Assembly (NCBI GenBank): GCA_037833965.1 | Contig: AP031358.1 | Coordinates: 11,850,001-11,914,000, forward strand | Direction: 5' to 3' | Length of the DNA: 64,000 nt | Origin: Marchantia polymorpha subsp. ruderalis | Taxonomy: Eukaryota > Streptophyta > Marchantiopsida > Marchantiales > Marchantiaceae | Translations under genes and position numbers: made by a program | Part shown: positions 1-60,984 of the stretch, in pieces | Layout: each line of letters starts with the position of its first letter | Position numbering within the stretch: the first letter of the stretch is position 1 | The notes under the pieces: model-generated | Database searches by the model: none | What the model was told of the DNA's origin: nothing | What the model saw: the letters and a program-made list of their open reading frames with translations, nothing else

Positions 1-37
1 GATATCATCTAGGGTCCCACACTCGTGGACTGGGGAC

Positions 38-665
38 ATGGACGGTATGTACGGGGCCATGAAGGGCCCACGGCAGTACTCTTGTGCAGTGGGCACCATT
101 GAGTTGGATGATTTCATCCAGGAGTTTGACACGTGGTGCGATATGCAGTTCTTGCGTAACCCCACGTTGTTTACACCCTTCTTTGCATGGAAGGGGTTGT
201 TTCAGCATCTAAAAGGGCCTTCCATGGATAACTACCATGAGTTTGGGAGAGAGTATGCTGTGGAGATTGACGCATGGAGGCGTTATTGATCTCCAAACTA
301 TATGTCGATCACCCAGGATGGTGTTGGTACCAGTGGAGGTGCGAGTGGTAGCATCACCGATGGTACTAGTGGAGTAGGTACCACCAGCGGTGCTCTTGGC
401 GTTGCCAGCACGAGTAGGGAGACTACTGGCGTACCTTCGTTCAGTCCCATTCCTGAGTTCTTCAAGAGGTTGAGGAAGAACTATCAGGGGGTGAGGACGG
501 AGAAGTTGAGGAATCTCCAGGAGTTTGAGCGGAAGACTGGTGAGAGTCTTTGGGAGGCATACACTCGTATGCGGCGGTTGATCTCAGTTACTCACGGTGT
601 AATTGAGGCACAGGCGGTCCAATATTGGTAGAGGATACTGGACAGAGAGCTACGGCGGAGGGTTT
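38..665 (+). pseudogene. Element 1 gag (capsid-like) fragment
   Basis: One frame runs from the window start to about 660, with stops at 287 (TGA, where TGG would be expected) and 629 (TAG, where CAG would be expected). The first part has the aromatic-rich helical look of a retrotransposon gag (residues such as FIQEFDTWC and the WKGLFQHLKG segment). It is followed by a Gly/Ser/Thr-rich stretch (302-430) and a second helical block typical of retrotransposon gag. Near 660 the meaning moves to another frame, giving the segment DATLLSDASSTLAYVFALSE. Gag would form the particle that packages element RNA. The family cannot be fixed by eye. Confidence 0.6.
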
Positions 666-1280
666 TGCGATGCTACCCTCTTGAGCGATGCGTCATCGAC
701 ACTGGCCTATGTGTTTGCTCTTTCTGAGAAGATTGAGCTTAGCATAGTGGAAAAGAGAGTGGTGACTTCTTCATTCGCTAGAGACGCAGCCACTACCTCT
801 CGTGTCCCGCAGAGCACGGCACAATCTAGACCCTTTGGTGGTGGTAGTGGTGGGGGTCACGGAGTGCAGACACGACACCAGACGGCCGCTAGAGATACAG
901 AGGCACGTGCACCAGTGCCGTCGTTTGCTGGCCAGTAGCAGGGATCAGCATGTTGGACATGTGGAGGGGATCATCTGCGGAGAGATTGTCCCCAGGAGGC
1001 CGGAGGTCGGAGTTCACAGGCCATACTCCAGTCAGCCCAGGTGGTGTGTGACCAATGTGGTCGAGCAGGTCATACTCGAGATCGGTGTTTTGATCTTCAT
1101 CCAAAGTTGACATCTGGTGGTAGAGGTCGTGGTGGTGATGCTTCTCGAGATCGAGGTGGCCGTGCTGGTAGAGGTGGTCGAGGTGCCGGTGTAGTTGGAC
1201 GTCCTGTAGCGAGTGCTACTTCGGCCACAAAGAGCGCGATGGCTGCCCAGATTGAGCAGTCGGAGTAGAGGCTTGCTGCT
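666..1280 (+). pseudogene. Element 1 nucleocapsid region with two zinc knuckles
   Basis: This frame continues gag after the shift near 660. It contains two nucleic-acid-binding knuckles. The first is CWTCGGDHLRRDC (about 955-993), spaced C-x2-C-x3-H-x4-C, one residue short of the classical spacing. The second is CDQCGRAGHTRDRC (about 1047-1088) with classical C-x2-C-x4-H-x4-C spacing. An Arg/Gly-rich tail (about 1120-1200) follows, as is common next to nucleocapsid knuckles. TAG stops interrupt the frame at 936 and 1266; in both cases the context reads well with CAG (Gln). Confidence 0.75.
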
Positions 1281-2411
1281 ATGGCGAGTTCTGGGGCGAG
1301 CACTTCCACCTCTTACGAGGAAGAAGATTTCCCTTATTTAGCGAGTGCAGCACAGGTGGAGGCATCGGTTGCAGTGACTAGAGGTGCAGCTCGAGCTCCA
1401 GAGCCACGTGGGGCAACAGGGAAGTTGGACCCTCAGAGGGGTGAGGGTGGGCGTCATGCCAGACTTCTCCAGTCGTTTTTGTTGTTAGAGGTGGGCAGTA
1501 CTTCATCCATGAGACCTGTACCACCTAGTGACCTTAGTGGGAGGACTGAGACATCTACGTCACGTGTGGTGGACACGGACACACCATCTAGTGCAGTGAC
1601 GCGGATGGCTAGCTCAGTGATGAGATTTCCACTATTTTTAGGTACGGAGTTGATGGACTCAGGGATCGACTTGGCTCGGGTTTTTTGTGCAGCAGCCCCG
1701 TTGTGTGAACGTGGGAGTATCACTGCTACGAGTGCCGAGATAGGCGAGACTATTTGTGAGAAGCTATCCTCTACGACTCCATCGAGCGATGAGTCGACAT
1801 GGCAGGCGGCAGCAGCACGGATGGAGTCCTTGCCAGCCCGACCAGCCAATGATCGGGAGAGGGTTATCCTCGGTGTGTGTATGATGGACAACTGGAGCGG
1901 TGTATTTTGCTTGGTGAGTGCTACAGGGCAGGTGTACGTTCCAGCCAGAGTGTTGCTGGATTCTTGTGCACAGCCTTTGATGTTGGGCAAGATTGCCTCC
2001 ATTAGTTTGGGAGTTGGAGCCTTGTCCGTTCCAGATTCAAACATCACTCGGTAGCACCAGCAACAGGTCTTACAGGATGACCAGAGAGCGCATATCAGTG
2101 CAGTTGAGGCATGGTCATGCTCAGGATAGCTCGCAGTTTGGAGTTCGAGCGGTGGTTACATCAGTAGAGTCATATGATGTGCTTGTTGTTGGAGCGGTGT
2201 TATATCCGATGGGATTTCGGATGGATTATTGGACGGAGACGGCAGCTTATCGCCCTGGTTGGGAGTCCGGTGATGGACGTATGAGTGAGCTGCCTGTGAC
2301 GTTCATTTCTCGAGATCGACCTCTTGGATCTTCTCATGCAGTTTTAGCCTTTATTGCGGATTTCAGTGGAGTGCTCACATGGCCTGATGACTTGTTGAAG
2401 GGGAACAGGTC
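1281..2411 (+). pseudogene. Element 1 linker and aspartic-protease-like segment
   Basis: Residues at 1281-1880 form a low-complexity Ser/Thr-rich linker. From about 1880 the frame resembles a retroviral-type aspartic protease: a hydrophobic strand followed by VLLDSCAQPLMLG at 1950-1988. Here the usual D-S/T-G-A catalytic triad reads D-S-C-A (1959-1970), so the conserved glycine is replaced. After a frameshift near 2005 the sequence continues in another frame to 2451 with a conserved-looking domain (segments MDYWTETAAYRPGW and LPVTFISRDRP) that I cannot name. The next domain, the methyltransferase, needs another frame change near 2400. Confidence 0.5.
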
Positions 2412-3869
2412 AGCCGAGGATACTCCATCTATGAGGAGGTGGAAGAGATGATGAGTGTCGCAGCGGAAGTGTCATCATCTTTGGATGTTCCACTTTGGGG
2501 TTCTTGCCACGCATTACAGCACGAGGCTGATAGGTTGGTGAAGAAGGCTTGGAGTGAGATCTTTTTACCAGCAGAGGCAGAGCGAGTCTCAAGTGGTCGG
2601 CTAGTATGTGGTCTTAGCACCTTATCACAATTAGTTACTACACCTATCGTATGGGAGTATTCCCTAGAGGGTGTTTGTTTGCTGGATCTTTTTGGAGGAA
2701 TCAGCACGGGTTTGGCTGCAGTGTTGCAGTCAGGTATTCTTGTACGTAGATACTTGTACGTGGAGAAGGACGAGACTCCACGTCGGGTTTATTCACGACA
2801 TGTTACACGGTTGATGCAGCGTTTTCCTTTGTTGTTGCCGCGATCAGCTGTTCGAGGATACCAGAAGGCGTTGCCTTCAGACATTTCATTGTTGGGGGCG
2901 CCAGACCTCGATCGAGTTGGACATATCGAATTGGTGATTGCGGGATGGCCATGTCAGGGGCACACACGCGATGGGCATGAAGCAGGGTTACATGACCCGA
3001 GATCTCGGATGTTTTGGGAGATGCTACGAGTGTTACGTCATCTCCAGGAGCAGCATACACGTTCTCCCGCATACATTCTGGAGAACGTACCATTGTTGGG
3101 TGACACTTAGACCCAGTTGATGGCGAGTGTCCATGAGGTCAGGGCATGGATTGGATCAGTAGTGTTGCTGGATGCAGCGAGGGTTGGTTCACGTGCTCAT
3201 CGTGCACGTTTATGGTGGACCAACCTTGTGCCACGAGAGATATTGCGTCATGCGTATGATTCTGTGCATCGCGATCCTACACTCACCGTTGACAAGATCT
3301 TGGATGTCTCTCGATACTATCAGGTGATGAGAGTTGCTGACAGGTCACCTATGGCATTGGTGAACCGCGTAGGTCAGCCTCGGATGGCTTTACCTACGTT
3401 AGTCAGTTATCCGGCATCACATGCATATCGTGATGGTGGACCTGGACTACTGTGGAACAGTACCCTAAATCAGTTGGTGGAGCCCAACGCCGATGAGAGA
3501 GAGCGTGCGATGGGATTTATGACTAGTGAGACCGCGGCTTCTTTAGTTTTAGAGGCGTCGCGTCGTCAGGTTTTGGATCATGCTATGAACCTGAACTGCT
3601 TGACATGGATCATGAGCTTGGGTTTGGCCGAGCAACGCCGTTTGCGCGTTGATTTGGTGGTTGTTACACCACTTGTTAGCTCATTGCCTACTGGGACGGT
3701 AGTGGCAATGGCTGGGGGCGACAGGCGAGATATTCGTCATCCTTGGAGTTCATGGGACGTGACGAGAGGACTTGCTAGAGTGGCCGCTCACGCAGTTGGA
3801 GATGTTGGTCACGTGGAGGTTGCTACGAAGGAGGGTACGGAGAGCCCTTCTTTGGAGGAGGTGTCATAG
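2412..3869 (+). pseudogene. Element 1 cytosine-5 DNA methyltransferase domain
   Basis: The frame carries the landmark motifs of C5 cytosine methyltransferases in canonical order. Motif I, LDLFGGISTGL (SAM binding), is at 2682-2714. Motif IV, WPCQG, is at about 2946-2960 with the catalytic Cys at 2952-2954. Motif VI, ENV, is at about 3081-3089. A motif VIII-like RARLWW block is at 3201-3218. Late motifs include ERERAMGF (3495-3518) and a motif X-like HAMNLNCLTW block near 3580. The order I-IV-VI-VIII-X is that of DNMT1/DNMT3 types, not the rearranged plant DRM order. The domain lies between protease and reverse transcriptase in the same orientation, so it is part of the element. One TAG at 3108-3110 splits it; otherwise the frame is open for about 485 codons. 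In an intact copy it would methylate DNA, possibly the element's own cDNA (inference). Confidence 0.85.
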
Positions 3870-4087
3870 CAACCAGTGACAATATCGCCTCCCTCGTGTG
3901 GGTCTATGGAGGAGGAGTGGGAGCCATCAATTGGTTCTTAGATCACTGGAGGAGAGAGGCGACCGTTGACACAATTCCTACGTGACTATAGGAGTTGTTT
4001 TGCCTTCAGTATGAAGGAGTTGGGTATTTTGATTGGACCCGGCATACAGATAGAGTTGGCTAGTGATACGCCAATTGATATAGTGAT
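3870..4087 (+). other. Element 1 spacer between methyltransferase and reverse transcriptase
   Basis: The methyltransferase frame continues past the TAG at 3867 with a second TAG at 3939, then about 45 readable codons ending in a TGA beyond 4090. Reverse transcriptase begins in a different frame at about 4080. At least one indel therefore lies near 4075-4090. No separate domain is visible here. Confidence 0.5.
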
Positions 4088-4723
4088 ATGGAAAGGGACT
4101 TGATTCGGAGTCGGACGTTGATGTTATTGGAGGCTGGGTTAGTGGAGTTGTCGCATGGTGAGTATGCTTCAGCCACTGTTATGCCAGCGAAGAAGGATGT
4201 ACATGGCAACTACACGGATAGGCAGATGTGTGGAGATTACCGTCTTATCAATTGGCAGACGAAGGCCGATAAGTATGCCATGCCTACACCTGAGGAGACC
4301 TTCGATGTGGTGGGACATGCGAGGATTTTTAGTACTTTGGATCTTCGGGCGGGATACCATCAGTTGCCGATTCGAGAGGAGTACAAGGCCAAGACAGCGT
4401 TTTGGGGTGTCAACTCCCACGGCAAGGATTGTTTGTATCAGTGGCGATTCTTACCCTTTGGGTTGAAGAATGCACCTGCCGAGTTCCAAAGAGTGATGGA
4501 CAGGATTCTAGCGGGGCTAGATTTAGTCAGATGTTACATTGATGATATCTTGGTGTTTAGCGACACGGTGGAGCAACACCCGATACATTTGCAGATTGTG
4601 CTTGAGCGGTTGAGGGCTCATGGTCTGCGGTTACATCCTGGGAAGTGTAGGTTCTTCCAGGAGAAGGTGGAGTACTTGGATCATGTGATCTACCCAAGTG
4701 ATTTGGGAGTTGAGCAGGCATAG
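4088..4723 (+). pseudogene. Element 1 Ty3/gypsy reverse transcriptase
   Basis: This is a clear Ty3/gypsy reverse transcriptase. It has the DYRLIN segment near 4229, STLDLRAGYHQL at 4331-4366, the FLPFGLKNAPAEFQR palm block at 4448-4492, and the catalytic box YIDDILVFS at 4535-4561 with both Asp residues. It would copy element RNA to DNA. The thumb/connection region continues past a TAG at 4721. The 'GLKNAPAEFQRVM' wording differs from that of elements A and B, so element 1 is a separate lineage. Confidence 0.85.
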
Positions 4724-5230
4724 GTGGAGGCTATTGAGCGCATTCCTCGTCCGGCGGATGTGAGTAGGGTTCGTGCATTCATGGGTTTGGCGAACTATTA
4801 CCGGAGTTATGTGAAGGGATTCAGTGCTATAGCGAAGCCTTTGAACTAGTTGCTGAAGTCGGATCAGGAATAGCAATGGGGAGATGAGCAGGAGAGAGCT
4901 TTTGTTGAGCTCAAGGCCAGGTTGGTGGCCGCTCCCATCTTGAGGAGACCTATCAGAGGTCATCCATACCAGTTGCACACTGATTGGAGTATGTTGGGAC
5001 TTGGAGCGGTGTTGACGCAGTGTGATGATGAGGGCAAGGAGTTGGTAGTTGCGTACGCTAGTCGTTCGAACAATACAACAGAGTCGCGGTATAGTTCGTA
5101 CGAGGGAGAGTGTTTGGCAGCGGTGTGGGCTGTGGCACACTTCAAGGTTTTACTTGTTTGGTACGCAGTTTACCCTTGTTACCGATCAAGTGGTTGATGG
5201 AGTCTAACAAGCTCACATGGAAGCTTGCAC
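4724..5230 (+). pseudogene. Element 1 RT connection and RNase H, cut by element A
   Basis: In the same frame as the reverse transcriptase, the connection region (FMGLANYYRSYVKGF at about 4778-4822) leads into RNase H: HTDWSMLGLGAVLTQ (about 4976-5020), YASRSNNTTESRYSSYEGECLA, and a frame-shifted TDxxxxxWLMES near 5180-5210. TAG stops occur at 4721, 4847 and 4871. The coding sense stops at 5230, exactly where the LTR end of element A begins. Nothing resembling the rest of this RNase H or an integrase for element 1 appears on the far side of element A. Confidence 0.75.
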
Positions 5231-5973
5231 TGCAACCTCCGTGCTGACTCTCACTCAGGTTTACCTCAGATGGCTTTTCGGTAGCTCATCATGATTCTAG
5301 AAGACTAGGATTCCGCATCATACTCAGAAGCTAAACACCCTCTCACACAATCTCTCAAGGTATCACTCCAACTCATACACTCATCGACACTCCAAGGTAC
5401 TGAAAATTCGTCACTCTTTCATATATGAAACAAGTCTATACATATGAACTCTCCAAACTTGCTTGAGAGGCTCTTCCCTACCTCTCTGTATATATTACTT
5501 GAGAATTTACCATAGTAACAAATGGTAATTTCTATCTAACTTACTTTTAAGAAGATAAACCATAGTAAGGTTGACTAGTTATCAATATGTGGCAACATGC
5601 CATTGGCCCCCTAAACCTTCTAGATGTTTACTAATCCCTAGATTGAGGTGGCGACATGCCATTTCCAACTTCTAGATTTTCCACTTTCCACTAAGTCAAC
5701 ATTAGACTTAGTCTAACCAATGGAATACTCTTTACTTTAGTCAAACCAATCAAAACTAAACATGAAGTTCAAAAGTCTTTTCTCTTGGAATCTAGACTTT
5801 TGTACAAGACAAAATAGAAGTGCTCACTCAAATCTTCTAGAACTTCTCTAGTTATTCCGCCAAGTATAGACATTATAGCTAAACTAGCTAGATTTAGTCA
5901 TAACTATCCTAACCATGATTAACTCCTTGGCTAATTCTAGTTTTATTTCACACATGCAATATCTGGTCTTACA
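5231..5973 (-). repeat. Element A 3' LTR
   Basis: On the plus strand it starts TGCAACCTCC and ends TGGTCTTACA, which is TG...CA in element orientation. It matches 25343-26085 almost base for base and has the same 743-bp length. A polypurine-type tract lies just inside, at 5974-5990 (read on the minus strand as a G-run before TAAA). Confidence 0.95.
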
Positions 5974-14488: not shown

Positions 14489-15728
14489 TGTGGTACCCCA
14501 CTTTTGGCAATTTTGAGAAAATTAAAACATTTTTGGAAAACTATACCCTGGCAGCATTGTAAATAGCCTTCGGTATGCCTAGAGTGAATCCGGAAGATCG
14601 CGGGGATTCTCGAGGGATCTTGTAGAATCTGGGATTTGGGGTGCAGCAGTAAGGACAGGCACCACCCTCCCTGCGAGCTCTGCAGTTAGGATCTCTACGG
14701 CGCAAGGCGCAAAACCCGCCTTCGGAGGTTGCGTCCGCGGCTGTAGGGAAACCCTCCATAATTAGGTCAACCCTCGGGCGCCTTGACCAAGTTAGGATCC
14801 CGTTGGAAAGAGCTCGACGCACTGATTCCAACGAGCCCAAGAACGCTTGGAACGGATGAGGACTTAGGGAGTTATCGCTATTGGAAGAAACGGAGGCGGT
14901 CGCCTACGGCGGAAAGAGTTCGCCACCGGCGCGAATTCCGCCTACGCGGAAGGGGGAATCAAGTTTTGTCCTATGCGCGGACGAAGGCGTTCGCCTGTGC
15001 ACAGGCGAAGTAGGGTTAGGGGAGGCGCGAAGTCCGCCTACGCACAGGCGCTCGCCTGTGCACAGGCGCTTCGGCGTCGGCGGAAAATCCGCCTTGGGCC
15101 CTAGAAATGCGCCTTGTGAGGTAGAAAGTGTACGGCGCCTTCCGCGCCAGCGCGGCGCCGCGTACGTCGGAAGAGCCGCCAGAGTAATCAAATCGGTACG
15201 GACCATGCGGACGGGAAGGGTGGATGCGCTCTTGGACGGACGGAGTTGCGGCGGCGGAAGCGCCGACGAAGAGACAAGGAACGGACAGACTGGACGGAGA
15301 CGGCTGACCACGGTCAACGCCTTCCGCGCCAGCACGACGTAGCGCACGGAATTCGCCTGCGCACAGGCGAACGCCTGTGCACAGGAGGATGAAGTTCTGT
15401 GCCGGCGGAGAATCCGCCGAGGCTCTTGCCTGCGCACAGGCAGGAGTTGAACTTTTGTCCGACATGCGGACACACGCGTCAAGGCAGAGGGGGATTGGCC
15501 GAGGGGCGGTACGAACAAGTGTACCGCGCAAGGCGGAAAACTCGCCTTCGGCGCTACGCCCCCATGTCCGCAGGGTAATACGCTCGCGGAGTTCAAATCC
15601 GCCAATTCGAGCGTGAGAGTTTAATCGACGACGGCGGAGCGTGAAGCCGCGCGTGAGAGCGAAGACCGTTCCAGCGTACAGCCGGCGCGGCCATCAAGTG
15701 AGACGTTCTTCACGAGCAAGGGCCGACC
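14489..15728 (+). other. Element C palindrome-rich leader
   Basis: This non-coding GC-rich segment (on the plus strand) carries the perfect 16-bp palindrome CGCCTGTGCACAGGCG at 14992-15007 and 15053-15068. Variants lie at 15035-15050, 15354-15369, 15372-15385 and 15428-15441. Shorter CGCCTTCGG/CCGCC motifs recur throughout. Long ORFs on both strands here reflect the GC-rich composition and lack any family signature. Confidence 0.6.
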
Positions 15729-18700
15729 ATGACCTTCGACCGGGCGGCGGAGAACGTCCCATTCTTGAATTCGCGATTCCAATCTCTTGTGCGCGCTGCG
15801 CGCATCCATCTGCTGGCTGCGGAACATTCTCGACGTCGTCGCACAGGAGATTTCTTGTTGATTGAGGGAGAAGTGAGTGCGCGTGATTTGGAATTGAGGG
15901 CGATTAGAGTTTGCCGAGAGAGAAAGAAACCCGGGCGGTGCGGAAGTAGAATGAGCGGGCGAGCGAACCCCAGGAACGCAATGACGAGACCGAGCAGATT
16001 GCGGATGGTGCCACTTCGCCTATCGCAGAACGGGCTGCGCGCTTTTGAGGAGCGCTTAATAGCAAGAAAGCTCGATTTCTTGCTATGGGGATGGAATTAC
16101 ATCTGTGCGAATATGGTGCGCGAGTGGCTAGAGCCACAGGGACCACCCTCGCGCGGATTGCGTCCGCATGTTGACCGGTGGACAGTCCAAGATTGGGCGC
16201 AGGCGTTGGGAAGATGTGCTGGCATGCCAGGGCATCTCCTTTTCGACAGTGAGAGCATCAAGGTGACCAAGCAAGAAGAGGCGCAATTTGTGGAGCTGTT
16301 CAAGACCGGGAGGTCTACCAAGAATGGGTACAGGACCCGTGATTACAAGGATCGATTTCGCCGGACTTTGTCCGCGGCGCTGATGCAATTACTGCAGCCG
16401 CACCGCGCCTGCTACATCACATTGTGGCAGGTCTCTTTTGTGGAGTGCGTCATCGAGGGAACTCCAATTCACTGGGCGAGCATCCTGCACAGGGTGATGC
16501 GACAGCACGCGTTTGAGGAGAAGGGGGGAACTCTAAACCATCTTTCTCCTTTCCTCATCAATTTTTATCGACAGCGGAATTGTTTGACAGCGGCGGAGCT
16601 TGAACATTTTCCGCCATTGTCCATCGACCATCCCGGGAAGTATGTGCGGGAGAACGAGGTCGACACTGATGCAGAGGAGTCACCGACTTCTACCCCATCA
16701 AGACGGAGGGACGAAGGGAGACACACTCCTGCAGCACGAGTGCCGCGGAAGCGGCGATGGAGGGAAGAGTCTGAAGAGGAGCAGCATCAAGAACCCTCTG
16801 CTCCCATTCGACCGCGGCCGCTGTGCGAGCCATACAGCCGGCCGAAGCAGAAGGCACGCAGACTGGTGTTACCAGCCGACAGTGCGGACACGGCGACAAT
16901 TGCGACGGAGATAGGAAGTGCGTCGCCAGAGGAGCATGAGGAAGCGCGGACGACCGCAGGAGCGACGGGCCACGCTGCAACCTCGACGGGAGAGAGGCCG
17001 CCTACGGGCCAAGGGCCTCCGGAGTTACCACGTGCGATGCGGACAGATGTTCCGTTTGCGCACAGACGAGCCTCCGCGGACGGACGAGCCTCCGCGGACC
17101 GGCGAACACAAGTGGACGTGGATCTACGCTTACGCGTGGGAAGGAGCAGTCCGCCTGTGCACAGGCGCTCGCCTGTGCACAGGACGCTTCCACACGTGCC
17201 GCCTGTGCACAGGCAAGAATCACCCCCGTTCCAACGTAGGAAGGGGAAGGAGCCGGCGGAAGAACCGCCTACGAGACACCGGCCCTCGGGGCCAGACCCT
17301 CCGGCGCACCACGCGCCGCAATTTGCGCCTTCGGCGCCAGGGCCTTCGAGCCGAGGAGATACGAGCAGAGAGCGTGCGGAGGCCGCATCATCGGCGGGAA
17401 GTCCACCGATAGATGCGCCTTCGGCGGTAGGGCCTATAGGCCAAGGAACATCGGGCGTGCGGCCCCCGGCCATGTCGCCTTCGGCGATAGATGTCCGCGG
17501 CGCTACGCCTGCGGCGGACAAGACGCCGGCAAATGCGCCTGCGCACGGGCCGGGCACAGCCCCCACGGACCGATCAAGGGAGCAGCAACAGACGGAGGAG
17601 CGGAGTGACTGTCCGCGGGATGAAATCTCGATGCGCGATGCGTAATCAAACCCCGCGCAGTCACCCTCCGCTCGATCGCCTTCGGCGGCGGACGACGGCG
17701 GCAGAGAGGATGCGGTAGACAATCAACAAGCGAGCGACGGGGATGCCGCACGGGTACATTCGCCTTCCGCCTTAGACATTTTGGCGACGAGCAGCGAGGC
17801 TGCAGCCGTGCCTTCGCAGGCAGCACACGTCGATGACGTGCAGCCCCACTCGGGGCAGTCGCCGACGCAATCAATGGCGACTGAAATTCTCCACTCGGAT
17901 GATGACGACGGAGGCTCCACGGAAGAAATGTCAGGAGCAGAAGACACCGAGGAGGAGGAGGAGGAAATTGTTGGAGCGCCGGCGGCGGCGCTCTCTGAGC
18001 AGGTGATTCCGTTGCTGCGGTACTTGGATCGCAAGGTCGTTAAATACGCCGACCCACTCCAGCCGGGATCTTACATCGAGTTAGTGCGCAGGCGGACTCG
18101 CACTAAAGTCCACACCAGCAAGCTATTAGCTAGAGTGGACCAGGAGTTGAAGGAATTGAAGGAGAAGCATGCGTGCTTGTGGGGTCAGTACAAGCTTAAT
18201 CAGAAATTCTACAAGCACTCCGAGAAGATGAAGGATGAGAAACTGGGCGAGCTCACCAAGGAGCAGGTGAAGGTCAAGGAAGCACTCATTTCTGAGCAGG
18301 CCCAGAATCGGATTTTGTCAGAGGAGCTCGTGCGACAGACGCGGTTGTTGGAACAATGTCAGCTCGCACGGCAGGTGGATGAAGAGTTAATCCGCAGGTT
18401 ACAGTCAGAGTGTGGCGAATTGAGAGCGCAACGTGCTGAAGCCGAATCGCAATTAGTGATAATTGAAGAGGATCGCAGGAAGGAGGCGGATCGCACGAAG
18501 GTGGAGACGGCGAGGCGAGTCGCCCACTGTCTCAAGGGCTACGCCCACTGGGAAGTGAAGGCGCAGGAGAAACTCACACTGCGTGAGTTTGAATTGCGCG
18601 CAGCCGGGTTGTTGTCAGGCGACAGTAGGAGTCGGCGGAAGGTAGCAAAGAAGCTCGATGCCTTTCTGTCGAAGGCACAGGATACCATGTCCGCCCTCGA

Positions 18701-18854
18701 AGGGGAGGTGTCCGCGGCGTTGCAGCGGTTGGGACTGCGCAGTCGAGCGGAAGATTGGCAGGGTAGGGAGTTAGTGCGCGGCAGTCGGCCGCGCAGGAGA
18801 CGTAGTACAGGTTCCGCGGAGTGTAGTGTAGCGTGGTTCCGTGCAGGCGTGTAG
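15729..18854 (+). pseudogene. Element C long ORF: plant-transposon-like domain, repeat-rich middle, coiled coil
   Basis: Two open stretches (15729-17645 and 17781-18854) and the 135 bp between them are one frame, broken only by TAA at 17643-17645 (one C-to-T from CAA). Read through, it has about 1041 codons. Residues ~92-300 form a globular helical domain (motifs FLLWGWNYICANMVREWL, HRACYITLWQVSFVE, GTPIHWASILHRVM) whose layout recalls the 'putative plant transposon protein' domain found in many plant mobile genes; this is a weak match by eye. Residues ~300-700 are Pro/Ser/Ala-rich and encode the palindromic repeats as PPVHRRSPVHR. An acidic patch is at ~718-748. Residues ~770-1000 are a long coiled coil. 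ATG 15951 is an alternative start. Function is unknown; a structural, gag-like role is possible. Confidence 0.55.
17152..17214 (+). repeat. Palindrome cluster inside element C ORF
   Basis: The exact 16-bp palindrome CGCCTGTGCACAGGCG at 17152-17167 is followed by truncated copies at 17170-17183 and 17200-17214. It is in frame within the long ORF and matches the copies in the leader. Confidence 0.8.
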
Positions 18855-25342: not shown

Positions 25343-26085
25343 TGCAACCTCCGGGCTGACTCTCACTCAGGTTTAGCTCAGATGGCTTTTCGGTAGCTCA
25401 TCATGATTCTAGAAGACTAGGATTCCGCATCATACTCAGAAGCTAAACACCCTCTCACACAATCTCTCAAGGTATCACTCCAACTCATACACTCATCGAC
25501 ACTCCAAGGTACTGAAAATTCGTCACTCTTTCATATATGAAACAAGTCTATACATATGAACTCTCCAAACTTGCTTGAGAGGCTCTTCCCTACCTCTCTG
25601 TATATATTACTTGAGAATTTACCATAGTAACAAATGGTAATTTCTATCTAACTTACTTTTAAGAAGATAAACCATAGTAAGGTTGACTAGTTATCAATAT
25701 GTGGCAACATGCCATTGGCCCCCTAAACCTTCTAGATGTTTACTAATCCCTAGATTGAGGTGGCGACATGCCATTTCCAACTTCTAGATTTTCCACTTTC
25801 CACTAAGTCAACATTAGACTTAGTCTAACCAATGGAATACTCTTTACTTTAGTCAAACCAATCAAAACTAAACATGAAGTTCAAAAGTCTTTTCTCTTGG
25901 AATCTAGACTTTTGTACAAGACAAAATAGAAGTGCTCACTCAAATCTTCTAGAACTTCTCTAGTTATTCCGCCAAGTATAGACATTATAGCTAAACTAGC
26001 TAGATTTAGTCATAACTATCCTAACCATGATTAACTCCTTGGCTAATTCTAGTTTTATTTCACACATGCAATATCTGGTCTTACA
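25343..26085 (-). repeat. Element A 5' LTR
   Basis: 743 bp, TG...CA in element orientation, nearly identical to 5231-5973. It is followed directly by LINE-derived sequence at 26086 with no copy of the left flank (TGCAC). Confidence 0.95.
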
Positions 26086-46915: not shown

Positions 46916-47694
46916 ATAAGAGCGAGGCTATCAGATTGATTACCATTTACGATATCAGATACACACGATGCAATGCCGATGTTCAAGACGAAATATGACA
47001 TGAAATGAAATGAAATGAATGCTGGTTGGCGAATACTGAATCATCGGTCCTGTAGCTGTAGTTACCGTAAACTCACCCGTTGCTTACTGCGTCGAACCAG
47101 CAAAATTTGAATACTGTAATGTGAAAGGTTTGCTACCCATGTGTAATGAGCTTCGTTCGTGACTAAAATAATTTGGATGGGAGACAAGAAGCAGAAGACA
47201 TTACAAGGTTTAGGATGTTTTCATATACTCTGCATCTCCTTACAACTTTAATGATATGTGTGTTTGTATGTATACTTTCATTTTATTTTATAGATATGCA
47301 AGTTCTGCAAGGATCCTTCATTCCCCGTAAATCTCCGGGCCCATTGAGATTGCAGTAAAAAACAAGTGGGTACTTCGTGATCCAAATTACATCACAACAA
47401 CAAAATTGGAACTTAATCAGAGGTTCTTTGGATCGAAAAGAAATTCGATGCTCCATCCCTCATAAGAATTAGTGTCCACTGTGACTGCAGCCATTGTCAG
47501 TTATTAGGGCTTGTCCTCGAGCCCAGCATGTTTTTGGAGACTATATTGTGAAAAACAATGCTACCCAAAAGCAAAAAGTGCCATTCGTGATTAGAAGAAT
47601 TTGGATCAGAGACAATAAGCGGAGGACATTCCAAGGTTTAGGATGGTTTAGATGCATATACTCTTCATCTCCTTGAACTATTAATGTACGTTTC

Positions 47695-47745
<51 letters not shown>

Positions 47746-50700
47746 ATAGACATTCATTTTAGATCTACACATATGAAATATATTTGATCATCCATCCCAA
47801 TAAGGCTTAGTGCCCATTGTGACTGCAGCCGTAGTCAATTAGCAGGGCACGTCCTGGAACCCAGCATTTTTTGAATATCATACTGTGAAAAACAATGCCC
47901 TCGTTTGTATTAAGTTTCATTCGTGACGAAAAGAATTCGGTTCAAAGACAAGAAGCTCAGGACATTTCAAGGTTTTTGTTGGTTTCATATATTCTGCATC
48001 TCCTCAAATTATGATTGTTTGGTTCTAATATATTACAAATTTATTTTAGTACCCTTTTATGCAAGTTGTAAAATGATCCTTCATTTTCTGTAACGCTCCG
48101 TGACCATTAAGATCGCACTCACAAACAGATGGGCACTTCGCAGACCACAGTAGATCACAGCAAGAAAATTGGAACTTATTCAGAGGTATTTTGGACCGAA
48201 AAGAAATTCGATGCTCCATCCCCGGTTAGCCTTAGTGCCCATTGTGACTGGCAGCAACAGTCAGTTAGTAGGGCGTGTTCTGGAACCCCTTAATACGATC
48301 ACACTCTTCAAAATCATAAGAGCGAGGCTATCAAATTGATCATGAGACGTGATGCAATGCCGATGTTCCAGACGAAAGATGAAATGAAATGAATGCTGGT
48401 TCACGAATACTGAATCATCACTCCTGTAGCTACCGTGATCTCACCCGTTGCTTACTGCGTCGAACCAGCAAAATTTGAATACTGTATTGTGAAAGGTCTG
48501 CTACCCATCTGTAATGAGTCTCATCCGTGACAAATATTTGGGATCAGAGACAAGCAGTAGAGGACATTCCAAGGTTTAGGATGGTTTCATATACTCTGCA
48601 TCTCCTTAAAATTTCAACGATATTTGTATGTGTATATATACCTTCACTTTATATTCTAGATATGCAAGTTCTGCAACGATCCTTCATTCCCCGTAACTCT
48701 CCGTGCCCATTGAGATTGCAGTAATAAACAAGTGGGCACTTCGCGATCCGATTACATCATAACACGAAAACTGGAACTTATTCAGAGGTTCTTTGGATCG
48801 AAAGAAATTCGATGCTCCATCCCCCATAAGGCTTGGTGCCCATTGTGACTGCAGCCATAGTCGGTTATTAGGACTTGTCCTCGAGCACCAGCTCCCATTC
48901 GAACACTTTAATTTGAAAAGCAATGCTACCCGTTAGTAAAAAGTGTTATTCGTGACTAGAAGAATTTGGATCAGAGATACAAAGCAGAAGACATTCCAAG
49001 GTTTTCGATGGTTTCATCTGATCTGCATCTCCTTAAACTATTAATGTTTGGTTGTATATATATTACACATTCATTTTAGTACCCATTTATGCAAGTTGTG
49101 AAATGATACTTCATTCTCTGTAACGCTCCGTGGCCATTTTGATCGAACCCATAAACAAATGGGCACTTCGAAATCCAAATTAGATCACAACAAGAAAATT
49201 TGAACTTATTCAGAAGCTCGTTGGACCGAAAAGACAATTGATCTTCCATTCCTCATAGGTCTCGCTGCCCATTGTGACTGCAGCCATAGTCAAATAGTAG
49301 GGCACGTCCTGGAACCCAGCATTTTTTTGAATATCCTAATGTGAAAAAAAATGCTACACATCTGTAATAAGTTTCTTTCGTGACTCAAAGAATTTAGTTC
49401 GGAGACAAGAAGCAGAGGACATTTCAAGGTATTCGATGGTTTCATATTCTCTGCATCTCCTTAAACTATTTGTGTTTGGTTGTGTATATATTACACATTC
49501 ATTTTAGTTCCCATTCATGCAAGTTGTGAAATGATCCTTCATTCTCTGTAACGCTCCATGACCATTGTGATCGAAACCATAAACAAATGGGCACTTCGAA
49601 ATCCAAATTAGATCAAAACCAGAAAATTAGAACCTATTCAGAGGTATTTTGGACCGGAATGAAACTAGATGCTCCATCCCCCTAAGGCTTAGTTTAGTGC
49701 CCATTGTGACTGCAGCCACAGTCAGTTAGTAGGCGTGTACTGGAACTGCTTAATACGATCACAATCTTCAAAACCCATAATAGCGAGGCTATCAAATTGA
49801 TTATGAGACGTGATGCAATGCAGATGCTCAAGGCGAAAGATGACATGAAATTAAGTGAATTCTTGTTTGCGAATACTGAATCATCAGTCCTGTAGCTGTA
49901 GCTATCGTAATATCACCCGTTGCTTACTGCGTCGAATCAGCAGTATTTATAAACTGCATTGTGAAAAACAAGGCTACCCCTTTGTAATGAGTTTTATTCG
50001 TGACTAAAAGTATGTGGATCAGAGACAAAAAAGCGGAAGACATTTCAACGTTTATGATGGCCTCATATACTCTGCAGTTCCTTTTGAATTAACGTATGTG
50101 TGTATATATGTAAACTCATTTTAGACTAAAGATGTGCAAGTTCTGTTACGATCCTTCATCTACCGTAACGCTCAGTGCCCATTTTGATTGCAGTCATAAA
50201 CAAGAAGGCACTTCAAGACCCAAATTAGATCACAGCAAGACAATTGGAACTTATTCAGAGGTTATTTGAATCAAGAAGAAATTCGATGCTCCATCCCCCA
50301 TAAGGCTTAGTGACCGTTATGACTGCAGCCATAGTCGGTTAGTAGGGCTTGTTATGGAACCCAACATTATTTCGGAGACTATATTTAGAAAAACAACGCT
50401 ACCCATTGGTTATAAGGTTCATTCGAAACTAAATGAATTTGGATCAGAGACAAGAAGCAGAAGACATTCCAAGGTTTAGGACTGTTTCATATACTCTTCA
50501 TCTCCTTAAACTATTCATGTAGGTTTGTGTATATTTTACACATTCATTTTAAGTCCCAACATATGCAAGTTGAATAACGATCTTTCATTACCTGTAACGC
50601 TTGGTGCCAATTGTGATTGGAACCAAAAGCAAGTGGGCACTTCGCGATACAAACTATATCACAAGAAGAAAATTGAATATATTCAGAGGTTCATCGCACC

Positions 50701-51480
50701 AAAAATAGATTCGATCATTCCCCAAAGGGTTAGTGCATTGTGACTGCAGCCATAGTCAGTTAGTAGGGAGTGTCATGAAACCGCTTAATATTATCACTCT
50801 CTTCAAAACCCATAAGACCGAGGCGATCTGATTGATTATGAGACGTTATGCAGTGCCCATGTTCATGCCGAAATATGAAAAGAAATGACCGCTGGTTTTA
50901 CGAATATTGAATCGTCAGTCCTGAAGCTACCGTGATCTCACCCGTTGCTTACTGCGTCGAGTCAGCAATATTTTGAATACTGTATTGTGAAAAAGTATGC
51001 AACCCATTTTGTTAGGAGTTTCATTCGTCACTAGTAGAATGGCATCAGAAACAAGAAGCTGAAGACATCCCCAAGTTTTAAGATTTTTTCTTTGCTCTGA
51101 TTCATTTGCTCTGCATAGGCTTAAAGAACTCATGTATGTTCGAATTTATAGATACACGTACATTCTAGATCCCCAGATATGCAAGTTGTGTAACGATCCT
51201 TCACCCTGCGTAACGCTCCGTGCCCATTGTGATTGCAGCCATTAACAAGTGGGCACTTCGAACTCCAAATTAGATCACAACCAGAAGATTAGAACTTGTT
51301 CAGAGGTTCTTTGGACGGATTGGATGAAATTCGATCCTCCATCCCCCCTATAAATATGCGTGACCCGTGGGACTGCAGTCATAGTCAGGAGTGCACATCG
51401 CAGTCAACATGACGTCACAGCAGGAAATTGGAATGAATTTAGACGTTCGGTGCACCGAAGAGAAACACCGAACAGGGAGT
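46916..51480. repeat. Higher-order array of diverged ~430-bp and ~200-bp repeat units
   Basis: A unit of roughly 430 bp recurs about nine times. Landmarks are GTGACTGCAGCCATAGTCAG (near 47485, 47822, 48848, 49277, 49712, 50322, 50743, 51372), GACATTCCAAGGTTTAGGATGG, CTCTGCATCTCCTTA and AACGATCCTTCATT. A second block (GAGCGAGGCTATCA...CACCCGTTGCTTACTGCGTCGAA) is interposed near 46921, 48325, 49785 and 50818, so a composite of ~1.0-1.45 kb repeats. No ORF is conserved between units, so this looks like satellite-type non-coding DNA. Confidence 0.85.
47696..47749. repeat. (AAAT)n microsatellite
   Basis: About 13 uninterrupted copies of the 4-bp unit lie within the larger repeat array, at the point where neighbouring units have a short A/T tract. 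Confidence 0.95.
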
Positions 51481-54137: not shown

Positions 54138-56102
54138 ATGTCTGCGGTGGTTTGCGGGAAGCGGTCCCTTTTCGACGATCTGCACGGCTCGCCTCCCATC
54201 GCTAAAAGAATCCGCTGTGGGGGCAATTCTCCCATTCGCTTCCAGTCCGTTGTCTCGCCGATTAGAATTGGCGCAGGAGGAGCTGCGGAGGCAGGGTCGC
54301 CCGGGCGGCCTTCTGTCTCTTACTTGGACGAGCATCTTACTCAGCTTCGAGCTTCTTTTCCCGAGATGGACGGACAGGTTTTGCCTGCTTTTGCCTGTTT
54401 TTTTTGCAATGCAGAGCAGATTTTATCAGTTTAAGTCCTTTTGTCGAATTTTTTTTGAAGTTTCTGCTCCCGGAGTTGTCTTTTTTAGGGTTAAAGATTG
54501 TTTTTTTATCTGTCTTTTTCTCAATTTTCACTGTTTTTTGGCGTGGTTTCAGCTGGTGGAGAAAGTTTACGAGTCATGCGGGAGGAATTTGGATTCCGCT
54601 ATCAAGAGCCTAACTGATCTCAGACTCAGTTCTTGTGAACTTATCAACCCTTGCGAGAATGGAGGGCATTCCGCTTCCTCTGGTGCACCCTCTTCATCAG
54701 CAAGCGTTGCGGCTGTCACTGAAGGTGATTCGACGTTCAAAAGATTTTTTGGGTTGTTGTTGTTAAGTTCTTCTTAAATTCTGTTGCATGATTTAGTGAT
54801 TTTTTAGCTCGAGTTAACTTGATGGTTATTTTGCTGCAGGGTATGGACAAAATACTGTCGTCCAAACTTCTCTGGGGGAAGATAAAACATGCCAACAACC
54901 TGCGGGAAATATCCCCGGCGATGGCACCGAGTGGGTCGACCTCCTCGTGAGGGAGATGTTGAGTGCTTCAGACTTGGAAGACGCCAGGATGAGGGCTACT
55001 CGTTTGTTGGAGGCGTTTGAGAAAACAGTTGCCTCTCGCACGGGAGTTATCACAGAGGTCGTCAGAAAAGTAAGAATCTATTCTTTTGCATTCTTTTTAA
55101 ATTTTGTTATGAATCTTTCGAACTCACGAATCGTTTTGGACGAATGTAGCTAACATTTTAATTGGGTTTTCGGCAGGAAAACATGGCTCTCAAGGAACAA
55201 CTCCAAGGTTTGCTGAGAGATAACCATATCCTCAAAAGGGCAGTTGCTATTCAGCACGAACGCCAACTGGAGCATGAAGAGCGATCCAGGGAACTTGAAG
55301 CAGTGAAGCAGCTTCTCACACAACACCAAGAACAGCTTCGGAGCCTTGAGGTACGCGTTTATCTGATCTTTTTCCTTGATTTGATTGTTAATATGTTATC
55401 TTCCTCTGTTTCTACTTGCATACCAGAATGTTTTGCATTGTTAGCATGCTAAATCTTAGTACAATATTAGAGAAATCGTTTGAACATCAGTTTGAATTGT
55501 GTTTCACGAAGTTTCTTGTTTTGTCTCGGTCTCGAAACGAATGAGATCGAAGGCAATGATTCTTAGAAGTATTCTGTCTTGTATGGGAACTTTGAGCATG
55601 TTATTTCAACCAAATGTGGTATGGTTAGTCGTGACTTGGATCTGAGTCCCAAACGGCTCGCGCTTGTGGATCTGCATACACATCTTTCATAGCTGTACTA
55701 TCTCGAAATCATGTGGCTCTCGTTTAAGGATCGTTTGACTCCAAAGTGCTTGAGCTGTTCGTTCCCGCAAGCCGTAAGCCGGAAAGCGGCTGGAGGGTAA
55801 TTCTGAGAACATGAATGACGTAACGCTTTCTTGCATATGCCTCCCTCGCTCAAATCTTCAAAATATGGTCTGTCTGTTTCGCTCCCCTCTAAGAAACGCC
55901 TCTTCCATGCCGAATTCGCAAGCCCTCTTTGGAGATCGCTCAAGAACTCAGCAATTTTGTAGCTGTAGCTGCCTCTCCTTCGCTTTCCGCTATTAATCTA
56001 TCAGTGTGTGTGCAGCTTAACAACTACGCTCTTACTTTGCACCTGCGCAAAGCGCAAGAAGGGAGTTCCATTCCCGGACGATTTCATCCCAATTTGTATT
56101 AG
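54138..56102 (+). CDS. Plant CUE-domain protein with C-terminal coiled coil, five exons
   Basis: Exons are 54138-54377, 54553-54724, 54840-55069, 55177-55350 and 56016-56102. All introns are GT-AG, and the 903-bp CDS gives 300 residues. The N-terminus (MSAVVCGKRSLFDDL...KRIRC) and the C-terminus (LNNYALTLHL...SSIPGRFHPN, residues 273-298) match a conserved plant family of CUE-domain proteins annotated in Arabidopsis as 'ubiquitin system component Cue'. The CUE domain (residues ~62-105, LTQLRASFPEMD...CGRNLDSAIKSL) is a small three-helix ubiquitin-binding fold. Residues ~155-290 are helical, with a coiled coil at ~215-275 (ENMALKEQLQ...RSLE). It probably binds ubiquitin or a ubiquitinated partner; its pathway is not established here. 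ATG 54138 starts the conserved N-terminus. Intron 4 is long (665 bp). Confidence 0.9.
55377..55672. repeat. Intron 4 segment duplicated downstream
   Basis: This part of intron 4 recurs at 58274-58583, including GTTTCTACTTGCATAC, TTAGCATGCTAAATCTTAGTACAATATTAG, TCTCGGTCTCGAAACGAATGAGATCGAAGG and the shared end GCGCTTGTGGATC. Identity is high with scattered single-base changes and a small insertion (TATGG) in the copy. Confidence 0.9.
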
Positions 56103-56354
56103 TAGCTTGGCATAAGCAACTCCATCTACTACTCTTCGAAATGCAAAGGTCGACTTCGATGAGTCAGGGTTACTTATTCCTATCTGATTTTCAAGGACTT
56201 CCGAGATGGGGGCCACTCAGAGTCCCCTTAGGTTGTTGGAATTTTGGTGATGCGAACTAGCGAACATACTTCAAATTTCGGGTGGGTCTCGGATTTTGGG
56301 AGGACGTAGTTTGCGGGAATACAGGGGAAATGATCTTACTGTCAAAGGACAAAT
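56103..56354 (+). other. Probable 3' untranslated region of the CUE-domain gene
   Basis: 252 bp between the stop codon and the first repeat unit. No coding sense. Transcription may end here or in the repeat array. Confidence 0.45.
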
Positions 56355-59300: not shown

Positions 59301-59630
59301 ACCAAAACGTCCCACGATAGACAACTTCTGGGGATCGAACTTTTACCCCACACTGAATCGCATCGATTGCACGCCGATTGTTCACAGTGAGCATCGATAC
59401 TTTCTCGACATTTGACGTAAACTTGCCGCGAACACGAGTATCGATACGTTATCGAGACTTGGCCCAAACGTACCGCGATAGACAACTTTTGGGAATCGAA
59501 CTATTACCCCACACTGAATCGCATCGACTGCACACCGAGTGTGCACGATGAGTGTGGATACTTTCTCGAGAGTAAACCTGAACGTCCCGCGACCATGAGC
59601 ATCGATACTTTGTCGTTAGCACCCGATCAA
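56355..59630. repeat. Tandem array of three ~1.1-kb units with nested ~65-bp subrepeats
   Basis: A lead segment (GACAAGACGTTCGCGATAGATAACCT...GAGCAGCAATGACAATT...CTTGACACCGTCCGAGAG...AGACAATGTTTTGGTGA) begins near 56360, 57435 and 58588. Each is followed by many diverged copies of a short unit around CTCGAGAGTTGACC, CGCGACCAGAGCATCGATACTTT and TCGAACTATTACCCCACACTGA. In the second unit a 45-bp stretch (57652-57741) is doubled. The third is preceded by the intron-4 copy (58274-58583). Non-coding. Confidence 0.85.
58274..58583. repeat. Copy of CUE-gene intron 4 segment
   Basis: This is a downstream copy of 55377-55672, in the same orientation, lying between repeat units two and three. It contains no exon sequence and no splice signals of the gene. 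Confidence 0.9.
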
Positions 59631-60984
59631 AGCTTCGATTGTGAGTAACTCATCCGAACTCAGTGAGTGTATAGAGTTCATCTATGGACATCCGGAAGGA
59701 AGAAAAGAGGAAGTGTATTCGATTGTGGTTCGGGGATATATGATCGAAGTGGGGAAATTTACGACCGCTGAATTGAGAGCATTTTGAGTCTGGTGAAACG
59801 AGGAAGCGTGAGGCGAGTGAAGTCCATTCCGGAATGATGTGGAAACGACGACCTCCACATCAAATGAGGGTAAAGAAGAAAGGTTTTGCAAGTCACTTTT
59901 AATTCGCAATTTTAATATCAGCTCTGTAGGCAAAGTCTCAAACCTGCCCTACAGATAAAATAGCCTTCGGATGCACATCGGAGAGAAAAACGTGGGAGAG
60001 TCGGAAACTCGTAAAATTCACCGTTTTTTTTTCATACACATTCTTGACCATGATGCCTGGACTCTGTTTCGTTCCAAAGTAAATTATGAATTCTACACCT
60101 TATTACTGAACACAGGATTTCGCATTAGGAGAAGAGGAATCGTAGAGTAAAACGAGATTTGGAATGGCTTAGCAAAGAACGGGCATGCATGGGCAGGCAT
60201 AAGCAAGATCGTGCAAACTCATTAACTAATTTCTTATTTCTCAGTCTCTTATTCATGTTCTGGACTCTAGATGCAGATGATCGCAGATGCGATACGGCGC
60301 CAGTTTAGTAGAAGTTAATTACACATTGTCTTGGATTGGTGGCAATGGGGTCCGGCATCAGCAAAGGTTTCCGAGTATGTTGGTGTGCAGAGATGTAATT
60401 TCATCTTGCATTCAAGTTACATGATATATGGACGTAGACTTGCAAATTTTCGTGAAAGTGCTCCAGAGCCTACAATGTTATGCAACATGGATACACAATT
60501 CTTTAGGATAGTGTGTAATATATAATAGAAATTGTCAGAAAACCTTAGGAAATTCATTGGAATATAATCAAGTAATTCGAGATTTCTTACTTTTTACTGG
60601 GTTTATTTGATCATTTGACCTAGTTAGTGAGATGACATATCATGTAGATGTGTGAGATAGATCTGAGGTGAGATTGCATATTCAAAGTGTTGAATATATA
60701 TCTCACTAGATAGGTGAGATTGAAACCTCTGTCACGGGAAGGAAAACTTAGGAAATTGTAAGTCCACTATACATTAAGCTGCCTTCTCGTCTGTGACAGA
60801 GGGAAATGTCCTTTGATTTTTTTAGCGCACGCATCCACTCTAAAGCTGGATTCAGCACCCGAGCGGTCTTTTTGACGAGTATCTGGACATTCCATGCGTA
60901 TCTGAACATTCGATGAACCCTCTCGTATACGTGCCTTGTTCTTTTGGCGAAGTTTAGCTGAATATTTTCTTGTCTCTGTTTCAT
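59631..60984. other. Intergenic stretch without recognised features
   Basis: Short ORFs only (at most 83 codons), no domain wording on either strand, no RNA gene recognised. An A/G-rich GAGATG/GTGAGAT motif repeats around 60630-60720. Confidence 0.4.

What the first reader, a model, noticed from the sequence alone, without database searches (positions are those of the whole stretch)
2412..3869. Cytosine-5 DNA methyltransferase captured inside a Ty3/gypsy polyprotein
Seen: canonical-order methyltransferase motifs (FGG, PCQ with catalytic Cys, ENV, RxR, late motifs) sit between a protease-like segment and a Ty3/gypsy reverse transcriptase on the same strand. Known: such captures are reported in charophytes and dinoflagellates. 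Inference: this is a land-plant (or charophyte-grade) member; it could let element cDNA be methylated as it is made, linking the element to host silencing. The exact domain order protease-MTase-RT and the unknown domain before it (about 2090-2350) deserve description.
Basis: partly seen in the sequence, partly recalled or inferred. Interest (0 to 1): 0.88.

Follow-up and report, generated by a model that had tools for sequence, protein, structure and literature searches.

The report
Liverwort retrotransposon carrying DNA methyltransferase
A jumping gene of the liverwort Marchantia carries its own DNA-methylating enzyme, the kind of enzyme plants use to silence jumping genes, and relatives of it occur in other liverworts, peat moss and green algae.

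Summary
Window 2661-3611 encodes a DNMT3-class cytosine-5 methyltransferase between a retroviral-type protease and a Ty3/gypsy reverse transcriptase. This copy is dead, but its family is large in its own genome (Marchantia polymorpha), has copies with intact reading frames, and its MTase is under purifying selection (dN/dS 0.13). Relatives occur in other liverworts, Sphagnum, Closterium, Mesostigma and Cymbomonas. The closest published case is KnitGypsy-Dnmt3 of the charophyte Klebsormidium; one paper says such elements are absent from land plants.

UAG stands in 29 of 30 host copies (27 of those 29 with CARYYA) and in a distant environmental element; Pol (RT-RNaseH-integrase-PHD) follows in frame. 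(2) Four mapped copies have split repeats (A1...B1-A2-B2) yet TG...CA ends and 4-bp target duplications. (3) MTase and RT trees show the same groups.

Best reading: the MTase is made with Gag, packaged, and methylates new cDNA. Anatomy and selection are shown; readthrough is strongly supported by sequence; catalysis, packaging and purpose are inferred.

The parts
38..935 (+). Gag part of ORF1 (broken), from the ATG that matches residue 1 of P0097
   Evidence: tblastn P0097 1-209 at 38-664 (91%) and 211 onward from 669; weak Pfam Retrotrans_gag in 290-628 (E 0.008, below cut-off)
951..1088 (+). two CCHC zinc knuckles
   Evidence: read in the translation of 939-1265; Pfam zf-CCHC E 0.0068, below cut-off, for the first
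   Evidence: alignment to P0097 residues 632-772; Pfam Asp_protease_2 in relatives
2661..3611 (+). DNMT3-class cytosine-5 methyltransferase domain, one internal stop in this copy
3612..3866 (+). fast-evolving tail of ORF1 (85 aa)
3867..3875 (+). ORF1 stop TAG followed by CAACCA (UAG-CARYYA), Pol in the same frame
3915..5230 (+). start of Pol: reverse transcriptase and part of RNase H; integrase and PHD finger missing in this copy
   Evidence: whole ORF2 seen in L121 and L122
5231..5973 (+). repeat of the element whose insertion cuts this copy; its partner is 25343-26085 (99.7% alike)

Best explanation
The window holds a decayed copy of a Ty3/gypsy retrotransposon family that carries a DNMT3-class methyltransferase as the last domain of its Gag-side protein. 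Most ribosomes stop at the leaky UAG and make Gag-protease-MTase; a minority read through and add RT-RNaseH-integrase-PHD. The MTase is therefore made in Gag-like amounts, packaged with the RNA, and most likely methylates the new cDNA de novo, so that copies reach the nucleus already methylated. The DDE integrase then inserts the DNA with a 4-bp duplication, and the PHD finger probably reads the H3 tail at the landing site. Shown here: anatomy, distribution, selection on the MTase, ends and recent insertion of subfamily-A copies. Strongly supported by sequence: readthrough. Inferred: catalysis, packaging, cDNA as the substrate, and the benefit (shielding from host sensing or decay, and a quiet landing).
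For: MTase between protease and RT across species. MTase dN/dS 0.13 between two host subfamilies, like PR 0.11, gag 0.14 and start of Pol 0.12, against 0.57 for the ORF1 tail. Catalytic Cys in 109 of 110 domains, motif VI Glu in 115 of 122. DNMT3 class by profile (DNMT3A 1e-19) and fold (all 50 listed matches). UAG in 29 of 30 host copies, 27 of these 29 with CARYYA, Pol in frame; the same in L029. Same five groups in RT and MTase trees. TG...CA ends, 4-bp duplications in 4 of 4 copies, A1 and A2 98.9-99.7% alike. Published: related SymbioDIRS-Dnmt3 enzymes methylate CG in yeast (PMC5890265, section read).
Against: In that paper the KnitGypsy-Dnmt3 enzyme showed no activity in yeast (called inconclusive there, as DNMT3B failed too). 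RNA or a nuclear target is not excluded. Most retrotransposons do without such an enzyme. Host copies share ancestry, so the junction rests on two subfamilies plus one distant element. The four copies with mapped ends each have 1-3 stops in ORF1, so those copies themselves are not intact. In the tree the element MTases do not nest within host DNMT3, and host DNMT3 matches phage MTases about as well as theirs.
Confidence: 0.58

Rival explanations
1. The MTase works in the nucleus for targeting or self-restraint rather than on cDNA in particles: with the PHD finger it marks the landing site, so that new copies are silenced at once and harm the host less.
For: DNMT3-class enzyme plus a PHD finger best matching CHD4, PHF12, DPF, ATXR5, KDM5 and PHF21A; that several of these read unmodified H3 is recalled. 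PMC5890265 offers self-restraint as one option (section read).
Against: The MTase is on the Gag side, away from integrase and PHD in most relatives, which suggests particles; but the second architecture puts it next to integrase.
Confidence: 0.2
2. The MTase methylates the element's RNA, not DNA.
For: Raised for SymbioLINE in PMC5890265 (section read). The enzyme would sit beside the packaged RNA. DNMT2, a tRNA enzyme, is a weak profile match (1e-5).
Against: Profile and fold favour DNMT3 by far.
Confidence: 0.08
3. The ORF1 stop is not read through: Pol is made by splicing or re-initiation, and the UAG context is inherited chance.
For: Annotated gene models bridge the stop (P0103, P0106, P0112). 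Host copies are related. In the window TAGCARYYA is not enriched overall (2 found, 3.7 expected).
Against: Of 852 TAGs on the window's + strand only 2 have the context, one of them this stop; L029, with a 46%-identical MTase, has the same context and frame. Some relatives fuse both parts in one frame (P0131, 2318 aa).
Confidence: 0.08
4. Chance juxtaposition or one host gene hit by a transposon.
For: The window copy alone is broken and could suggest it.
Against:: repeated, selected, in the same order in several species.
Confidence: 0.01

Closest known systems
KnitGypsy-Dnmt3 of Klebsormidium nitens (de Mendoza et al. 2018, PMC5890265; abstract, passages with the Fig. 4 legend, and two sections read)
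   Same: Gypsy domains with a Dnmt3-type MTase, purifying selection on it, and, by the legend, repeats laid out as in DIRS elements.
   Different: There placed in the Pol ORF of a charophyte alga; its sequence and exact domain order could not be compared here. Here: land plants, MTase at the end of the Gag-side ORF before a UAG-CARYYA, PHD finger, ends and target duplications mapped.
SymbioDIRS-Dnmt3 and SymbioLINE-Dnmt of dinoflagellates (same paper)
   Same: Retrotransposon-borne cytosine MTases; the DIRS ones methylate CG in yeast.
   Different: Other retrotransposon classes; DIRS uses a tyrosine recombinase, this family a DDE integrase with 4-bp duplications.
Type I stop-codon readthrough of tobamoviruses (PMC5382211, passages read)
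   Same: UAG followed by CARYYA with the polymerase part downstream in frame.
   Different: Here in a Ty3/gypsy element; readthrough itself was not measured. A similar use in the soybean element SIRE1 is recalled and was not confirmed.
DNMT3A/DNMT3B and plant DNMT3
   Same: Motif order, profile and fold.
   Different: PCQ or ECQ instead of DNMT3A's PCN, own target-recognition stretch, no ADD or PWWP domain seen; 22 element MTases form a clade apart from host DNMT3, host DRMs and DNMT3A.

Membership tests
DNMT3 class | best profile match to DNMT3 rather than DNMT1, CMT, DRM, DNMT2 or bacterial enzymes | tested here: met
   DNMT3A 1e-19, DNMT3B 1e-17, DRM2 1e-8, HaeIII and HhaI 1e-6, DNMT2 1e-5; DNMT1 and CMT not listed up to 0.1
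DNMT3 class | fold closest to DNMT3 | tested here: met
   all 50 listed PDB matches of the model of relative P0001 are DNMT3A, 3B or 3C entries (985 matches at E <= 10 in all)
DNMT3 class | groups within DNMT3 in a tree | tested here: inconclusive
   element MTases form their own long-branched clade beside DNMT3 and DRM (84/90), rooted on phage MTases; partial outgroup sequences
DNMT3 class | de novo CpG methylation | not testable with these tools
   needs an enzyme assay
Ty3/gypsy | Gag-CCHC, protease, then RT-RNaseH-integrase | tested here: met
Ty3/gypsy | TG...CA ends and short target duplication by a DDE integrase | tested here: met
   4 of 4 mapped subfamily-A copies, 4 bp
Ty3/gypsy | simple direct long terminal repeats | tested here: not met
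   no such pair in four copies searched; split repeats A1...B1-A2-B2 in four mapped copies; not found in L114, subfamily B
KnitGypsy-Dnmt3 kind | Gypsy domains, Dnmt3-type MTase in the coding part, DIRS-like repeat layout | tested here: met
   against the legend and text of PMC5890265; kind, not sequence kinship
KnitGypsy-Dnmt3 kind | groups with the Klebsormidium sequences | not tested
   no Klebsormidium protein among the hits, which are limited by length and shared words; its sequence was not at hand
Type I readthrough | UAG followed by CARYYA and an in-frame continuation | tested here: met
   27 of 30 host copies (29 of 30 UAG) and L029
Type I readthrough | measured readthrough product | not testable with these tools
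   needs a reporter assay

The most novel reading that the evidence does not exclude
A self-methylating Ty3/gypsy lineage has lived in the green lineage since before land plants and has inserted recently in liverworts. It makes its DNMT3-class enzyme in Gag amounts upstream of a tobamovirus-type leaky UAG, regenerates its ends from an internal B1-A2 junction (CA-GC-TG) trimmed by integrase, delivers pre-methylated cDNA, and inserts it with an integrase fused to a histone-reading PHD finger. It would give host genomes a second, parasite-run source of de novo methylation.
Probability: 0.33. Interest if true: 0.88.

Novelty: new variant of a known kind. Interest (0 to 1): 0.76.

Why it matters
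Transposons are normally the target of cytosine methylation. Here a land-plant transposon carries the writer and keeps it under selection, in a genetically tractable plant. One paper states that methylase-bearing transposons are not present in land plants such as tracheophytes (PMC6338049, passages read); the Marchantia copies contradict the first half of that (vascular plants were not surveyed here). The question why a transposon would methylate itself becomes testable in a model organism. The Gag-side position and the leaky UAG predict how much enzyme there is and where it acts, and split-repeat ends joined to DDE integration raise a concrete question about how such elements finish reverse transcription.

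Tried and rejected
IMG/VR scans for related loci gave 0, 28 and 60 loci; none of the 88 has a family protease, RT, RNase H, integrase or PHD at the thresholds; three or four served as outgroup. The prokaryote collection gave one locus, L029, in a cyanobacterial bin; it is a retroelement with intact frames, most likely misbinned from an alga, so it is no evidence for a bacterial origin. Rfam and tRNA scans were empty. No simple LTR pair showed up in four copies, with 1.5 or 3.5 kb upstream and 4.5-5.3 kb downstream; this led to the split repeats. RNA folding after the stop: window z -0.8, L121 z -1.6, L029 z -4.4; no covariation test. DRM, DNMT1/CMT, DNMT2 or bacterial identity of the MTase was considered and is less likely. 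No age in years was given, for want of a rate.

Full report
CHECK OF THE OBSERVATION. Stop-to-stop frames of window 1-5300 hold, in order on the + strand, a weak Gag hit, a weak CCHC hit, a DNA methylase (PF00145, E 6e-8), RVT_1 (E 7e-31) and RNase H (E 1e-28); the protease has no Pfam hit in the window itself and is seen through its relatives. A search with the 492-aa MTase stretch (2391-3866, one TAG read as Q) gave 96 homologues at E <= 0.001; only the 7993 candidates sharing most words were scored. Named ones are from Marchantia polymorpha (up to 92% over the part covered), Calypogeia fissa, Sphagnum and Riccia sorocarpa; the others are unnamed, mostly environmental. A length-shifted search gave 39 hits, among them the 1278-aa Marchantia protein P0097 (88% over the whole stretch) and one from Cymbomonas. 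A third search, with the diverged relative P0129, gave 17, among them Closterium and Mesostigma. The Calypogeia, Sphagnum and Riccia proteins P0002, P0017 and P0061 lie on contigs of 8.8, 23 and 49 Mb, which speaks against contamination. No vascular plant is named among the hits, but no survey of vascular plants was made.

STATE OF THIS COPY. tblastn with P0097 and P0106 shows at least four frame changes (near 665, 2013, 2400 and 4077) and 9 in-frame stops between 38 and 5194 besides the ORF1 terminator, 8 of them TAG. Motif X is altered. At 5231 another element is inserted; its repeats 5231-5973 and 25343-26085 are 99.7% alike. Integrase hits further on in the window are distant (25-37%) and belong to nested elements. 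The window copy is dead; the biology must be read from its kin.

THE FAMILY IN ITS OWN GENOME. The window is C9:11850001-11914000 of a genome of 241,466,482 bases in 9 contigs. One copy there is 100% identical over 1278 aa to P0097, named from M. polymorpha subsp. ruderalis, so the host is almost certainly M. polymorpha; which accession is not told. P0097 matched 36 places (37 rows, one place in two pieces; 36 of 1650 first-look candidates scored), 18 of 36 without an internal stop. PF00145 matched 123 places of 290 candidates; at least three are host genes by motif order, two DRM-like and one DNMT3-like. The family RT matched 104 places of 3754 candidates. 70 of those 104 have a listed MTase upstream on the same strand. 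Of the other 34 I looked at five: two have the MTase (L140, L145), one only its C-terminus (L141), one only the junction (L142), one neither (L143). All these lists are capped, so the counts are lower bounds.

ARCHITECTURE. Of 150 homologues most are fragments (58 PR-MT, 56 MT only, 5 PR only); the longer ones give PR-MT-RT-RH-IN. A second order, RT-RH-MT-IN-PHD, is seen in four proteins (P0133, P0140, P0145, P0146), with one RT-RH-MT (P0149) and five MT-IN-PHD fragments; in the MTase tree the four, the five and Cymbomonas form one clade (SH-aLRT 99, quick tree). In two host copies ORF2 is 1045 and 1042 aa: RT, RNase H, integrase, PHD. The PHD piece of P0018 best matches CHD4, PHF12, DPF, ATXR5, KDM5 and PHF21A. 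For the 17 proteins with enough of both domains, plus the window copy, the RT and MTase trees show the same five groups, so the two domains have travelled together.

THE STOP AFTER THE MTASE. Homologous proteins end at much the same distance after the MTase: 85 aa in Marchantia P0097, P0100 and P0101 (others 76-87, P0056 47 by a different domain end), 87 in Calypogeia P0002 and P0028 and Sphagnum P0054, 103 in seven environmental proteins. In the window the stop is TAG followed by CAACCA, and Pol goes on in the same frame 45 nt later, until a later frame change. Of 30 host loci one (L112) could not be read at the junction by script; the other 29 have TAG, 27 with CARYYA and two with CAACAA, and Pol is open to the locus edge (498-499 codons) in 22 of 29. 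In one search the L112 junction reads TAA. That pattern search, with the stop left free and up to 3 mismatches, matched 96 places, reversed control 0: TAG 87, TAA 5, sense codons 4; its hexamer counts are biased by the pattern. The element L029, 46% identical in the MTase, has ORF1 of at least 1162 aa, TAG-CAATCA, then in-frame ORF2 of at least 908 aa, with no stop in either. UAG-CARYYA is the type I readthrough signal of tobamoviruses (PMC5382211, passages read). TAGCARYYA as such is not enriched in the window (2 found, 3.7 expected); what counts is its place. Host copies are related, so the independent evidence is two Marchantia subfamilies plus L029. Some kin instead fuse both parts (P0131, one 2318-aa frame).

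SELECTION. Between two host subfamilies (8 and 7 copies chosen for an ORF1 without stops; 56 non-independent pairs) dN/dS is 0.13 for the MTase, 0.11 protease, 0.14 gag, 0.12 start of Pol, 0.20-0.23 linkers, 0.57 ORF1 tail. Choosing copies without stops may lower these ratios; the tail serves as internal contrast. In 10 of 10 pairs of relatives with both, the MTase is more conserved than the protease; against RT it is less conserved in 9 of 11, equal in 1, more in 1. Catalytic Cys is kept in 109 of 110 domains, motif VI Glu in 115 of 122.

ENDS. Four subfamily-A copies (L092, L104, L100, L107) begin TGTCATGG with repeat A1 (about 285 bp) and end B1-A2-B2 (112, about 287, 112 bp) in CGACA, flanked by 4-bp direct duplications in all four (read by eye). 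At the internal B1-A2 junction the CA and TG are separated by two bases (GC) that integrated ends lack; it looks like a template for joined ends, trimmed by integrase (inference). A1 and A2 are 98.9-99.7% alike and B1 and B2 100% within a copy, so insertion was recent, although each of these four has 1-3 stops in ORF1. L093, L096 and L102 show the same B1-A2-B2; in L114 (subfamily B) no repeat was found in the stretches held. Copy L092 spans about 10.9 kb with a leader of about 2.9 kb. PMC5890265 says of KnitGypsy-Dnmt3 that its repeats are as in DIRS while its domains are those of Gypsy (legend read).

CLASS OF THE ENZYME. A profile of 46 family MTases scores DNMT3A at 1e-19, DNMT3B 1e-17, DRM2 1e-8, HaeIII and HhaI 1e-6, DNMT2 1e-5; DNMT1 and CMT are not listed up to 0.1. 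A model of relative P0001 (mean pLDDT 67, pTM 0.72, core residues mostly above 80) has only DNMT3 entries among its 50 listed PDB matches. In a tree with the host's own DNMT3 (exon pieces), two host DRMs, part of DNMT3A and three phage MTases, the 22 element MTases form one clade (100/99), beside and not within DNMT3 and DRM; by BLAST the host DNMT3 matches phage MTases about as well as the element ones. So DNMT3 class rests on profile and fold, and descent from a plant DNMT3 is not shown.

LITERATURE. Paper searches of the held open library listed no report of MTase-bearing Ty3 elements in bryophytes, Closterium or Mesostigma; subscription papers are mostly not held. Read: PMC5890265 abstract, passages and two sections; passages only of PMC6338049, PMC12344493, PMC5382211, PMC6453930, PMC9516144 and PMC10952607.

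CONCLUSION. A real, selected domain of a land-plant retrotransposon family; known in kind from a charophyte alga, new in host range as far as these searches go, in the Gag-side place before a leaky UAG, and in the described ends. What the enzyme does for the element remains to be shown.

Noticed in passing
5231-26085: A nested, young retroelement (repeats 99.7% alike) holds further inverted and nested Ty3 copies and cuts the MTase element.
   Followed up: partly
L091-L120, ORF1: Between the two subfamilies dS is 0.26 in the MTase and 0.19 in the ORF1 tail but 0.53-0.61 in gag and protease, which suggests exchange between subfamilies around the MTase.
   Followed up: no
ORF1 copies and window 38-5194: Stops in decayed copies are mostly TAG: 35 of 47 and 8 of 9 in the window, as CAG to TAG decay of CHG methylation would give (inference).
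   Followed up: no
P0133, P0140, P0145, P0146, P0134: Related elements place the MTase between RNase H and integrase; the Cymbomonas protein groups with them.
   Followed up: partly
L029: A retroelement with intact ORFs sits in a contig binned as an uncultured cyanobacterium; most likely misbinned algal DNA.
   Followed up: partly
L139 (C6:12458500-12461500): The host's own DNMT3-like gene has PCQ at motif IV, like most element enzymes and unlike DNMT3A's PCN.
   Followed up: partly
14860-18854: GC-rich stretch with long overlapping frames (647 and 402 aa) between nested elements; 17751-18119 matches part of Marchantia gene model P0095 at 42%.
   Followed up: no
47000-50890 and 55377-59651: Two fields of diverged tandem repeats, periods of about 428 bp and of 46 to 161 bp.
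   Followed up: no
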